Notes under the pieces: model-generated | Told to the model about the DNA's origin: nothing | Database searches by the model: none | The model's input: the letters and a program-made list of their open reading frames with translations, nothing else | Program-made: the position numbers and the translations under genes | Shown: positions 35,428 to 44,400 of the stretch, one piece after another | Layout: each line of letters begins with the position of its first letter | Position numbering within the stretch: the first letter of the stretch is position 1 | Assembly: GCA_903813345.2 (NCBI GenBank) | Contig: CAIIXF020000006.1 | Span: 7,862,989 to 7,926,988 of the forward strand | Origin: Owenia fusiformis | Lineage: Eukaryota; Annelida; Polychaeta; Sabellida; Oweniidae | DNA length: 64,000 nt | Direction of reading: 5' to 3'

Positions 35428-38400
35428 CTGAAAATAATTGTCAATTGTTTACATTTCAGTTTCTCATTTAAAGTTTTTGTCAAAATCTTTCATGAATAGA
35501 TCTTTCAATACAGGAAAGTACATCACGTATATGGCCTTAAAACTACCCATAATTAATTATTCTTTGACTTTTTTCTTCAATAGGTTAAGTCCTGTCCAAA
35601 CCAAAAGCATCTTCCTGAAATGTATAATTTCTATCCCCTCCCAGTACATTTTTGAACCGTGACATCCTTATCCATGAACATCAACGTAGCCTGAAATCTA
35701 TTAACTAGATATAGTAACACCACTCTCTGTAAAAGTCTTTATAATCTCAAATGTAACTTTAATAGCCTTTATTAGAATTTTGAAAGTCAATGAATGTCAG
35801 TAACTTACAGACAGAAAGCATATCGTGTGATATTTATGATTTCAGATTCTCATTTTAACTAATTTACATAATATAGATGGAGCTTAGTCCATGCAAAAGT
35901 TTTCCTTAATAATGCAACTTGACGAATACCTTTACTAGGCCTCTTTGAAACAGCATCTCCACCACTTCCTTCAGAATTGGTAATATTCCACTATGGTGGA
36001 TTCCTAGCCCTCTCTTCAACAGGTCACACATTCTAGTTACCTAAATTGATTAAAACAAGACATGTAGTCAATGTTGAAATGTAAGGGTTAATTGAGACAT
36101 ACAGGCAATGTTGAAATGTAAGGGTTAAATGAGACATATAGTCAATGTTAAAATGTATGGGTTAAATGAGGAATGTAAACATTGTTAAAATGTAAGGTTA
36201 AAATAAGACATATAGTCAATGTTGAAATGTAAGGGTAAAATGAGACATATAGTCAATGTTGAAATATAAGGGTTAAATAAGACATACAGGCAATGTTGAA
36301 ATGAAAGGGTTAAATGAGACACATAATCAATGTTGAAATGTATGGGTTAAATGAGGAATGTAAACATTATTAAAATGTAAGGTTAAAATAAGACATATAG
36401 TCAATGTTGAAATGAAAGGGTAAAATGAGACATATAGTCAATGTTGAAATGTAAGGGTTAAATGAGACACATAATCAATGTTGAAATGTAAGGGTTAAAT
36501 GAGACATACAGGCAATGTTGAAATGTAAGGGTTAAATGAGACACATAATCAATGTTGAAATGTATGGGTTAAATGAGGAATGTAAACATTGTTAAAATGT
36601 AAGGTTAAAATAAGACATATAGTCAATGTTGAAATGTAAGAGTAAAATGAGACATATAGTCAATGTTGAAATGTAAGGGTTAAATGAGACACATAATCAA
36701 TGTTGAAATGTAAGTGTTAAATGAGACATATAGTCAATTTTATTATGTAGGAGTTAAATGGGACATGTAATCATTGCTGAAATGTAAGGGCTGAATGAGA
36801 CAATGTTAAAAAGTAAGGGTTAAATGAGACAATCACATTGTCTATATAAGTGGTAAAAACCTATATTATGTCCAATTGAGAAATTTCTGTAAAACAATGA
36901 CAATTGCTTTTATATTAGTTTAATGAAGTAAGCGTGACTTGTTAATATTTGTCTTTTGCATTGACATAACATTTGAATAAAAAACTGCTTGATCTCAGTG
37001 TCAATACTTCCTGGTTGATGTTGTTAAGAAAAATCTGAGAGAAAGAAGGATAAAATCATATCTTTAGAAAAATGGAGCACGAATATATAAGGGTTATGTA
37101 CTGGGAGGTTTTGGATATGGGGTTTATCCAGAGGGAGATATGCATATCTACCTGAGGGACCATAGGGACCGAAGGTAGATGTGCATATCTCACGAGGGTT
37201 GAACCCAATATCCAAACCGACCGTACATAACTGCTTTATCCTACACCAAGTAGAGTTTTCAGGGGCATATCAATAGTACAAGGTGTAAAAAGCCATTTCA
37301 ATAGTACAAGGTGTAAAAATAACAATATGTCACCACTTTTGGTGGTGACATAATAAACAAATCATTCATATGCAAAGTCATTTTATTGCATAACCGTAAG
37401 CGGGAAGATATGCACCGAAGCGGGAGATATGGCGGGAGATATGGAGGTTCTTGATATGGAAACCTCAAAATCAGGATACGGGATATATCTTACCAACTTA
37501 TCTCCCTAAAACTCTACTTGGCATAGGATAAATGATATTATTCAAATATATAGTTTTCTTTATAAATCAAATATCTTAAAATCTAATGTCTATAATAAAT
37601 CAAATGAATCAGACAAGGAAGTAGGTCCTGCAAAAATCCCTGAACATGTACCTCAAATAAAATTAGAAATACATTATAGACTGCTAAGAAATAAGGATAT
37701 TGCTCAACTCAAGAAACTCAAAATGGAGGTTATGTAACTTTAAATTTTTACAAACTTGGAAAATTATATATTAAGATAACAACATTGGACAGTTTTCAAT
37801 TTGGAAAGAAATTATTTGATTTTACACTGAATTAAAGGCCTTGCAAATCCTTTTATTTCATTGATTTTCAATTTTGGATGTTTGTATATTTCCAGATCTT
37901 TGTATCGTATATGTTTATGCTGTGGGTTGGCATAAGTGAGATTCACATGTTAATGAGTTATCAAACAAATGCAGGTGATCAAAGGTCAAATGAGGCTCTG
38001 ATCAATTGTTTATATGATCATGAAAGAGATCATGTATTTGAGGATCAATTACATGATGCTGAAAAAGATGTACAAATAGGTACAACTGGCAAGTCTCAAC
38101 AAATCTTCATCCAAGGAAAGTATGATAAAACCCATACTGAGAACTTAAAGCACTCCTCTCCTCCACAGGATTTGGACTATGATCAACAGGATTATGTGAA
38201 CCATGATTCAAAATATAATACCAAAATTCCAGATTTTTGTTTGTGTATGTCATCGTGTCATTGCACAGCTAGATCTCAAAAGGATCACTGGCCTCTGGAA
38301 AACATTTTGGAATTCTTACCACACAACATTTCCAAGATATACCTAGCAAACTTTAACTTTGGAAACTTGAAAAACAACTCATTCAAACATTTTCCTGCAC

Positions 38401-41400: not shown

Positions 41401-44400
41401 CTGCATTCTTAAAATTACAACTTGGCAGTTGAGTGAAAACCTGTAAATAGTATCATAGGGAATAGCAAGTGGTTGGGGTTATAGTGTTAATCTAGTTTTG
41501 ATCAAGATATGATCATTTAAAATCATTTGCCACATACCTTTAATGTGCAAACAAAAAAATATCTACATAATAGCCCAACGGGTAACATCATAAACATACC
41601 TGAGGCAAGTCTCGGTCTTCTGGCTTAAGCTTAGAGACACAGCGATGGAAAAATATATGAACCTCGCTTTTTTCACTTGCAGTGGTCAAATCTACACTCC
41701 TCAAATGGTTGGCATTTTCCTCAATTCGTTTCTTGGAGAATGTGAAAGCCACTGTCGGCATCTTATCTTTTTTCTTTAGCATGTCTATCACTGAGAGCCA
41801 AATATTCTTGTCCTAGAAAAATAATTGAGGGATATTAAAGCTATAGTATTTTTTGCATTTGCATTCTACAATCTGTAATTATATACAAACAAAGTTTCCA
41901 ATTGTATATTTTGTGTGTATATAGCTTGTTGATATTATGTTAAATAAAGGAGAAAATAACAAAGCATGAACTGTTGCACAATATCTAGTCAATATCTGTT
42001 TTGTATAACATATATAGTGCTGCTTTCATATGTGCCCTTGTGGAATTACCTGCATTGGGTTGCCCCCACGTGTGCCTTTAGCCCCGTAACTCTGGGAAGA
42101 CTTGCTAGCCCGCTCTTTCTTGGCATCAAGTGCCTTGTAATAACTGAAAGAAACATTAAGGGATTAAATGCTAAAATGTAAATAATGCCATTTTGTTACG
42201 CTTTTAATCCTAATTCATTGTCTAAAAAGGAATCTGATCTTATCACATATGGATGTTTTGGATTTAAGATGCAATTCCCAAATTCATTAGAACTGAACAA
42301 GGGCCTGCCAAATAATAAATCAAAAAGGTATACCATGAAATTGGTCAACATTAGGAAATAGCCAGAAATACAAATGACTGTCAAAAACATCTTAGATCTT
42401 GCAAATTGAGCCTGATTTTCATTTTTCTGTTATGAGAATGCTATAGATTCCTGGCACCTTGCAACCTGTCTTGTCTTGAACAGACAGATTATATTGTCCC
42501 TCTGTCCTGTTTTTACCTCATACGTACCCAAACTTAGAATCCACCATTGCAATAATTTCTCCAAAACTGCTAGAGTTGCAAATAATACACTTATGGGGAT
42601 TGGCACTTGAAGATGCTACTTGGACAACTACTCAATTATGCAACTATATATATGAATACATAAAAAAGACTTACAAGTTATAACATTTAGATTTATAACA
42701 ATACTTTAGGCTTACCCAGTTTGTTTGAATTGCCTTGTAGAGTCAAGAATAAGAAATAGTTCATTGCTTGTTTTTGTGCTGTTCCCAGTGTAGAGGTAGT
42801 GCTCCAGAGGTACAGGCCTCTTGGTAGTACTTATCACATACATTCTTTTTTTCTTGATACGCCTAAAAAACAAATGAAAGATGAGGTATAATATTGAACT
42901 CAGTCTTAGACATTCCTGGATCTACATGTATATACCCATAGGTGGCAGATTTGTATATACGAGGGGTGATCAATAAGTAATGGACATACATGTTGATATA
43001 TCCTTATTTCCGTGAAGGAGGTACAGGTACCCCGGGACTGACATTTACGTTACATATTCAGTTTTTAGCCAGGTTGGCAAATTTCAGTTAGATTTAAACT
43101 TTTTTTTATATGCAACAAGTGTTGTGTTGTTTGAAATATTTTGCTGACTGGTAACGCACAAACAGTAAGTATTGTGATGTCAGAGTGTTGTATGGTCGGG
43201 GTTTACAGGTCAATTTGAGAACATTGTGAAAGAAGGAGTTGGTGAGAGAAGGAAACACCTTACTCCATATGGAAAATGCCCCTCCCCACAGATCTCAAAA
43301 TGTTCAGAAAACAATATCCCTGGACCTCAAAATTGAGCCCTTGGCCAATGCACCATATTGTCCAGATCTGCCCACATGTGACTTATTTATTCCTATACTA
43401 CTTATTTCTATAGAGAAGGGACGCAGGTTTATTGACATTGATGAAATAAAACAACCTGTGCAACTGCATCTTGTTACCATGTCAGAGAATGGATTCAGCC
43501 TTGTCTCACAATCTTGAGTTAAGAGGATGAGGAATTGTGTACATTAGCACTTGGTGGAACCTATGTAGAGGGCCCTGTAGAATGAATGTGGCATGAATAC
43601 CACATAGTGATGATAAAATATTCAAAATCAAATATGGCATAACAAAATGTGGTAATTCATGACCATAATGGTTTGTTATGTTCAGCCTGCATTCAACTGC
43701 GTTGCATGTTAAACAAGCTAAAATTGCTTCAGAATGTTTGACTTAATGTCGGTCCCTGGGTACCTATACCTCCTTCACGACAATAAAGATATATCAAAAT
43801 ATATTATATGTTTTGTTTTCAAATCTTCAGAGTTGATAGATAATTGAATGATGTATCACTGGTAAGAAAATCGAAGGTATTGGTCAATAAAAAGCATCCG
43901 TGTAAAAAAGCGTCCATTACTTATTGATCACCCCTCGTACCCATAGGTGGCAGATTTTGGTGAACTATTTATTTTTCATATCCCAAGACTGCTAAGTACA
44001 GTATGCCATCTATGATAACACTTGAACACATATCCAATGATATCAATATTAAAATGCTGGTTAATATGAATATTTTGCTTTGAAGCATATTCTCTGAATT
44101 AAAATTCCTTCATGAATGATGCATATCATAACTTAGAATGTGAAATAATATTAGTTTCCCATACCTGGAGGAAATAAATTTATCCTCTCAATGTTATGAT
44201 ATCCTTCCCTGGTATCTTACCAAATATGGGATAAATATTGCCTAACAGAAAGCATTTGAATGAAAACTCACTTACCCTACCCAGTCAGCGAACTCCATGG
44301 TGTTGGGTACAGTTGCACTTAACATGATGATATTGACATGCTGGGGCAACATAATAAGCACCTCCTCCCATACAACACCTCTCTAGAAACATATAAAACA

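What the first reader, a model, noticed from the sequence alone, without database searches (positions are those of the whole stretch)
36041..41599. Toll-like receptor gene nested antisense inside a SKIC2 intron
The complete two-exon TLR (37878-40537, plus strand) sits between SKIC2 exons 14 and 15 (minus strand), whose junction is phase-perfect across it. An immune receptor inside a housekeeping RNA-helicase intron could suffer transcriptional interference or form antisense overlap with the SKIC2 pre-mRNA, linking immune expression to RNA surveillance.
Basis: partly seen in the sequence, partly recalled or inferred. Interest (0 to 1): 0.7.

Follow-up and report, generated by a model that had tools for sequence, protein, structure and literature searches.

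The report
Immune receptor gene inside helicase intron
A complete Toll-like immune receptor coding sequence sits, on the opposite strand, inside one intron of an RNA-surveillance helicase gene; this looks like an ordinary "nested gene" of a well-known kind, and nothing in the sequence shows that the two genes regulate each other.

Summary
On the minus strand the window carries 16 in-frame coding exons of SKIC2 (SKI2W). The exon 14/15 junction, 41600 to 36040, is phase 0 with GT-AG ends; that intron is 5559 bp. A 775-aa Toll-like receptor (37878-39989 plus 40322-40537, plus strand) lies wholly inside it. It has LRRs, one membrane-proximal cysteine cluster, one transmembrane segment and a TIR domain.

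Not mentioned in the finding: the 3' half of SKIC2 (human residues 696-1246) was not found anywhere in the window (probe checked). Exon 16 ends in a GT donor, but no next exon was found in the 35 kb to its left. So either intron 16 exceeds 35 kb, or the sequence is broken or misjoined left of 35316. This does not undo the nesting, because exons 15 and 16 lie beyond the TLR.

Opposite-strand nested genes are common, and LRR-receptor guests recur in vertebrates (LRRTM in alpha-catenin introns) and flies (2mit in tim2). Verdict: new member of a known kind, low interest.

The parts
37878..39989 (+). TLR coding exon 1: hydrophobic N-terminus, LRR ectodomain, single LRRCT-like cysteine cluster, transmembrane segment, first part of TIR
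39990..40321 (+). TLR intron, 332 bp, phase 0, GTGAGT...CATCAG, inside the TIR coding region
40322..40537 (+). TLR coding exon 2: rest of TIR including the FW motif (motif name recalled), stop codon 40535-40537
36041..41599 (-). SKIC2 coding intron 14 (5559 bp, phase 0) that contains the TLR on the other strand
41600..41812 (-). SKIC2 coding exon 14
35930..36040 (-). SKIC2 coding exon 15
35316..35427 (-). SKIC2 coding exon 16, last one found in the window, ends in donor GTAATT in phase 1; no exon 17 found
42050..50138 (-). SKIC2 coding exons 1-13 with their introns (start codon at 50138; coding exon 1 read by eye)
   Evidence: Ski2_N and DEAD Pfam matches
36058..36802 (.). 37-bp tandem repeat, about 20 copies, directly beside the exon 15 acceptor
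37235..37532 (.). MITE-like stretch with 25-bp inverted ends (92%), upstream of the TLR; its 35-bp hairpin recurs at 33985-34019 and, less exactly, at 19842-19880
   Evidence: the MITE label is from recall

Best explanation
This is an ordinary opposite-strand nested gene. A TLR copy with its own small intron came to lie in coding intron 14 of SKIC2 as a piece of genomic DNA rather than as a processed mRNA. SKIC2 is transcribed through it and the whole 5.56-kb intron, with the antisense TLR, is spliced out. The TLR is transcribed from its own promoter inside the intron, ends in the roughly 1 kb before exon 14, and works as a normal single-cysteine-cluster TLR. Shown: exon order, phase, intact frames, domains. 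Inferred: transcription of both genes, separate promoters, DNA-level origin, absence of strong coupling.
For: SKIC2 exons 14 and 15 join in frame across the TLR with GT-AG splice sites, and exons 15 and 16 are still well conserved (79% and 87% identity to human; exon matches before them range from 33 to 93%). The TLR is intact over 775 codons, with LRR, transmembrane and TIR parts. It keeps a phase-0 GT-AG intron in its TIR region, which a simple retrocopy would lack. The GC3 of both genes is 0.40. In 1000-base windows the GC content runs from 0.29 to 0.40 through the region without a sharp step. The same architecture is documented: LRRTM1-3 on the opposite strand of alpha-catenin introns, and two-exon 2mit antisense in intron 11 of tim2 (passages).
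Against: No transcript evidence for either gene, and no promoter scan was run. The TLR start site and any 5' exon are unknown; a 5' exon outside the intron would make the genes overlapping rather than nested. The 3' half of SKIC2 was not found in the window, so the host gene's integrity is not shown. No insertion footprint was found: between 36803-37877 and 40538-41599 the longest shared word is 11 bp direct and 10 bp inverted. For the direct words, 200 shuffles of one flank gave 9 to 14 bp; no control was run for the inverted ones.
Confidence: 0.77

Rival explanations
1. The assembly is chimeric or rearranged. The SKIC2 piece is a fragment whose 3' half is elsewhere, and the TLR position is a by-product of misjoining.
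For: Human SKI2W residues 691-1246 give no match above chance in the window: best 20.8 bits, against 21.9 bits for one shuffled control (residues 696-1246 of the probe identical to 7qdr_A). The other 14 coding introns of the model are 201-1413 bp, so an intron over 35 kb would be out of line. Large tandem arrays lie in the left part (27.6-29.6, 31.6-32.0, 32.7-33.6 kb) and a 37-bp array lies beside exon 15, with a local GC skew of 0.41.
Against: A break left of 35316 leaves the nesting intact. A false TLR position needs two compensating misjoins, one in 36041-37877 and one in 40538-41599, with exons 15 and 16 restored in order and strand. There are no Ns in the window and no sharp GC step around the TLR.
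Confidence: 0.1
2. The nesting is regulatory. Transcription of the TLR and of SKIC2 interfere with each other, or antisense pre-mRNA pairing couples TLR induction to RNA surveillance.
For: The arrangement allows it. Nested genes can cause intron retention, exonization and cryptic polyadenylation in hosts, and some nested genes correlate negatively with their hosts (PMC3192792, passages). SKIV2L limits innate RNA-sensing outputs in mammals (PMC11405415 and PMC8759780, titles and starts of abstracts in the listing).
Against: No expression data; mature mRNAs need not overlap. [quoted passage not shown] The RNA-surveillance link rests on mammalian biology, not on this sequence.
Confidence: 0.06
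3. The TLR is not strictly nested or not active: its transcript starts from a 5' exon beyond SKIC2 exon 15, or the copy is silent.
For: The start codon context looks weak and a splice-acceptor-like TTTCCAG lies at 37889-37895 inside the open frame (sequence), compatible with an upstream non-coding exon. No promoter was shown.
Against: A hydrophobic stretch starts at the first ATG (residues 1-19), the frame is intact over 775 codons, and 1837 bp of intron remain upstream for a promoter.
Confidence: 0.07

Closest known systems
LRRTM1-3 nested in alpha-catenin (CTNNA) introns, vertebrates (PMC3933685, passages read)
   Same: LRR transmembrane protein genes on the opposite strand within one intron of an unrelated host gene; guests with zero or one coding intron
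   Different: Guests are neuronal proteins, no TIR domain in the passages read; host introns are about 50-450 kb in human; conservation across jawed vertebrates is shown there, none is tested here
2mit nested in intron 11 of timeless2, Drosophila (PMC3786989, passages read)
   Same: Two-exon LRR transmembrane receptor gene, opposite orientation, in one intron of a multi-exon host; TLR3 was the closest structural template for its LRR part
   Different: No TIR domain is mentioned in the passages read; nesting found in all 12 Drosophila genomes examined; function is behavioural
Human nested genes in general (Yu et al. 2005 and Assis et al. 2008, seen only as cited in PMC3192792)
   Same: Host/guest geometry; [quoted passage not shown]
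   Different: No TLR guest and no SKIC2 host among the passages read; the gene lists were not read

Membership tests
Opposite-strand nested (intronic) gene | whole coding sequence of the guest within one intron of the host, with host exons on both sides | tested here: met
   37878-40537 within 36041-41599; coding exons 1-14 on one side, 15 and 16 on the other
Opposite-strand nested (intronic) gene | guest on the strand opposite to the host | tested here: met
Opposite-strand nested (intronic) gene | host transcript spliced across the guest; guest transcript wholly inside | not testable with these tools
   splice sites and phase fit but there is no RNA data
Opposite-strand nested (intronic) gene | host is an intact gene | tested here: inconclusive
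   16 exons intact, but human residues 696-1246 were not found in the window; the window ends 35 kb beyond exon 16
Toll-like receptor | LRR ectodomain, one transmembrane segment and TIR domain in one protein | tested here: met
   LRR_8, TIR, TIR_2; hydropathy peak at about 573-598; matches to TLR5, TLR7, TLR3 among the 60 of 179 shown
Toll-like receptor, scc (V-type) | only one LRRCT, next to the membrane (definition from PMC8609888) | tested here: met
   cysteines 517, 519, 549, 570 just before the membrane segment; no second such cluster in the cysteine list, judged by eye
Toll-like receptor | signals through MyD88/NF-kB (recalled) | not testable with these tools
   none
SKIC2 (SKI2W) helicase | Ski2 N-terminal region and DEAD-type first helicase domain, closer to SKI2 than to MTR4 | tested here: met
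   Ski2_N E=2.2e-32 and DEAD E=1.7e-26; 653.7 bits to human SKI2W against 416-424 bits to MTR4/DOB1
SKIC2 (SKI2W) helicase | motif VI (QMAGRAGRRG; motif name recalled) and C-terminal half | tested here: inconclusive
   not found in the window; may lie beyond its left edge or be lost in assembly
Processed retrogene | intronless coding sequence, flanking target duplications | tested here: not met
   phase-0 GT-AG intron kept; no direct repeat beyond the shuffled range

The most novel reading that the evidence does not exclude
TLR induction from inside the SKIC2 intron physically interferes with SKIC2 transcription, so that an immune signal transiently lowers cytoplasmic RNA surveillance, and selection keeps the nesting for this. 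A second unexcluded reading is that SKIC2 intron 16 is truly longer than 35 kb and also hosts the plus-strand GPCR, endonuclease-like and death-domain genes, making SKIC2 a multi-guest host.
Probability: 0.05. Interest if true: 0.6.

Novelty: new member of a known kind. Interest (0 to 1): 0.22.

Why it matters
If real and expressed, it adds a TLR to the recurrent class of LRR-protein genes living antisense in introns of unrelated genes, and comparison with relatives could date how such receptors seed new genomic places. A regulatory link to SKIC2, which limits autoinflammation in mammals (titles and starts of abstracts), would matter more, but nothing here supports it.

Tried and rejected
Own-genome search: none is held, so synteny and paralogues elsewhere could not be checked; the sequence collections (viral, bacterial, phage, plasmid) were not searched because they hold no animal genomes by description. 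Rfam: 0 matches at gathering threshold in the window. Retrocopy origin: rejected because of the retained TIR intron and the lack of a footprint. Composite-transposon origin: not supported; the longest inverted word shared by the flanks is 10 bp (no inverted control was run), and at E up to 1e-3 the intron matches the rest of the window only through the 35-bp hairpin and its 41-bp relative. Tandem TLR copies: tblastn of the TLR against the window at E up to 1 found only itself. SKIC2 exons on the left or on the plus strand: none; one search also gave two stray matches there (330-388 at 10856-10695, E=9.1; 352-388 at 9745-9855, E=0.62), which repeat residues already covered by better exon matches and were dropped. 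One junk N-terminal path in the first spliced alignment (51182-50269, with two in-frame stops) was dropped, and its last exon end, 35314, was moved to the GT donor at 35316; coding exon 1 was then read and fixed. Two script slips were corrected later: a 4-base short TLR join (fixed) and an off-by-one start of SKIC2 exon 1 (fixed). No promoter scan and no structure prediction was run.

Literature: nine searches. Searches returned no paper; one listed 20 of 175, 22 listed 14 of 15, 28 listed 8 of 56; others listed 6, 2 and 2, all they found. No listed title or abstract start showed a TLR in a SKIC2 intron. I read passages of five papers. One of them, PMC12521104, says molluscan TLRs typically have multiple cysteine clusters, unlike this one; PMC8609888 finds the single-cluster type the most abundant in the spiralians it analysed.

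The assignment to a mollusc, or to spiralians at all, is an impression from gene content, not a result; the organism is unknown.

Full report
What was checked. The finding states that a two-exon TLR lies antisense in the SKIC2 intron between exons 14 and 15. I rebuilt both genes from the sequence.

Host gene. A tblastn of human SKI2W against the window gives an ordered minus-strand series of 15 matches from human residue 41 at 49484 to residue 695 at 35314, plus two stray matches at 9.7-10.9 kb that repeat residues already covered. A spliced alignment, then reading of splice sites, gives 16 coding exons from 50138 to 35316 that translate for 698 codons without a stop, the 15 introns between them GT-AG and in phase. 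Coding exon 1 was read by eye and is the least certain. The helicase part scores 653.7 bits to human SKI2W (7qdr_A) against 416-424 bits to human MTR4 and yeast DOB1; Pfam gives Ski2_N and DEAD. Coding exon 14 ends at 41600 and exon 15 starts at 36040, phase 0. The intron is 5559 bp, against 201-1413 bp for the other 14 coding introns of the model.

Guest gene. The plus-strand frame 37878-39989 joins to 40322-40537 across a 332-bp GT-AG intron in phase 0. The 775-aa product has a hydrophobic N-terminus, LRRs, one membrane-proximal cysteine cluster (C517, C519, C549, C570), a transmembrane segment near 573-598 and a TIR domain. Pfam TIR_2 rises from 20.1 bits for the frame of exon 1 alone (below its cut-off of 28) to 33.2 bits for the spliced form, and TIR is listed, above its cut-off, only for the spliced form, which supports the splice model. 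By the definition in PMC8609888 (passages) this is an scc (V-type) TLR, the most abundant type in the spiralian species that paper analysed; PMC12521104 (one passage) calls multiple clusters typical of mollusc TLRs.

Is it really nested? By coding sequence yes: 1837 bp separate the TLR start from exon 15 and 1062 bp its stop from exon 14. Transcript ends are unknown. Possible poly(A) hexamers lie 68 and 103 bp after the stop, but such hexamers are frequent here (12 on the plus strand of the intron), so this is weak. An acceptor-like motif at 37889-37895 leaves open a 5' exon further upstream.

What the finding does not mention. SKIC2 is only half present. Human residues 691-1246, which include helicase motif VI, give no match above chance anywhere in the 64 kb: best 20.8 bits, against 21.9 bits for one shuffled copy. 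The probe's 696-1246 part is identical to the PDB chain. Less conserved N-terminal exons were found with the same search settings (E from 2e-6 to 9.1), so the absence of some ten or more exons (number inferred) is unlikely to be a matter of sensitivity. Exon 16 ends in the donor GTAATT, so the gene should continue. Either intron 16 runs beyond the left edge (over 35 kb), which would put a GPCR gene, an endonuclease/phosphatase-like gene and a death-domain gene, all on the plus strand, inside SKIC2, or the sequence is rearranged or misassembled left of 35316, where long tandem arrays lie. The second seems likelier to me, because the other introns are short. Neither undoes the TLR nesting, since exons 15 and 16 lie on the far side of the TLR and a false position would need two compensating misjoins. 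There are no Ns and no sharp GC step, although the 37-bp array beside exon 15 shows a strong GC skew.

Origin. The retained intron speaks against a retrocopy. I found no target duplication: the longest direct word shared by 36803-37877 and 40538-41599 is 11 bp, while 200 shuffles of one flank gave 9 to 14 bp. The longest inverted word is 10 bp, for which no control was run. A DNA-level duplication or move is therefore inferred, not shown, and cannot be dated here.

Mechanism. Most likely the two genes are transcribed independently and the TLR is removed with the SKIC2 intron. Interference is possible: PMC3192792 (passages) reports intron retention, exonization and cryptic polyadenylation with nested genes, and quotes a study in which some nested genes correlate negatively with their hosts. 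[quoted passage not shown] The link to RNA surveillance borrows from mammalian SKIV2L work (titles and starts of abstracts only) and has no support in this sequence.

Novelty. About 6% of Drosophila genes are nested (PMC3786989, abstract start and passages), about 63% of nested human genes lie on the opposite strand (PMC3192792), and LRR genes are a recurrent guest class: of 19 opposite-strand nested structures lost in frog or chicken, 12 have an LRR-superfamily guest (PMC3933685, passages). 2mit, a two-exon LRR receptor gene antisense in tim2 intron 11, is nearly the same arrangement. No TLR-in-SKIC2 report appeared in the listings of my nine searches, but these cover only open-licence papers, some listings were capped, and I read passages of five papers. 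I therefore file it as a new member of a known kind, interest 0.22.

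Noticed in passing
35316 leftwards to 1: SKIC2 exons beyond the one ending at 35316 were not found in the window although that exon has a GT donor: a giant intron, a rearrangement or a misassembly.
   Followed up: partly
42958-43939: Degenerate mariner-like element (28-bp perfect inverted ends; remnants that look like transposase) in SKIC2 coding intron 11; a 20-bp direct repeat (42933-42952 and 43938-43957) flanks it. The mariner label is from recall.
   Followed up: partly
22589-23665: Single-exon rhodopsin-type GPCR gene on the plus strand (7tm_1 E=1.2e-37).
   Followed up: no
17916-19070: Single-exon endonuclease/exonuclease/phosphatase-like gene on the plus strand, just below the Pfam cut-off (23.7 against 24.5 bits).
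   Followed up: no
345-2239: Plus-strand pieces that look like a TNF-receptor-type gene: cysteine-rich piece, Thr-rich stalk with membrane segment, death domain (Death E=1.1e-05) near the left edge. Only the death domain is a tool result; the rest is by eye.
   Followed up: no
3603-4559 and 25077-26657: Reverse-transcriptase fragments, probably of LINE-type elements, on opposite strands (RVT_1, zf-RVT).
   Followed up: no
28023-29640 and 31561-32009: What looks like the same 32-bp minisatellite family in two separate arrays (TRF consensus units); a likely place for assembly trouble.
   Followed up: no
37319-37353, 33985-34019, 19842-19880: A 35-bp hairpin repeated exactly at two places and less exactly at a third, perhaps part of a short non-autonomous element.
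   Followed up: partly
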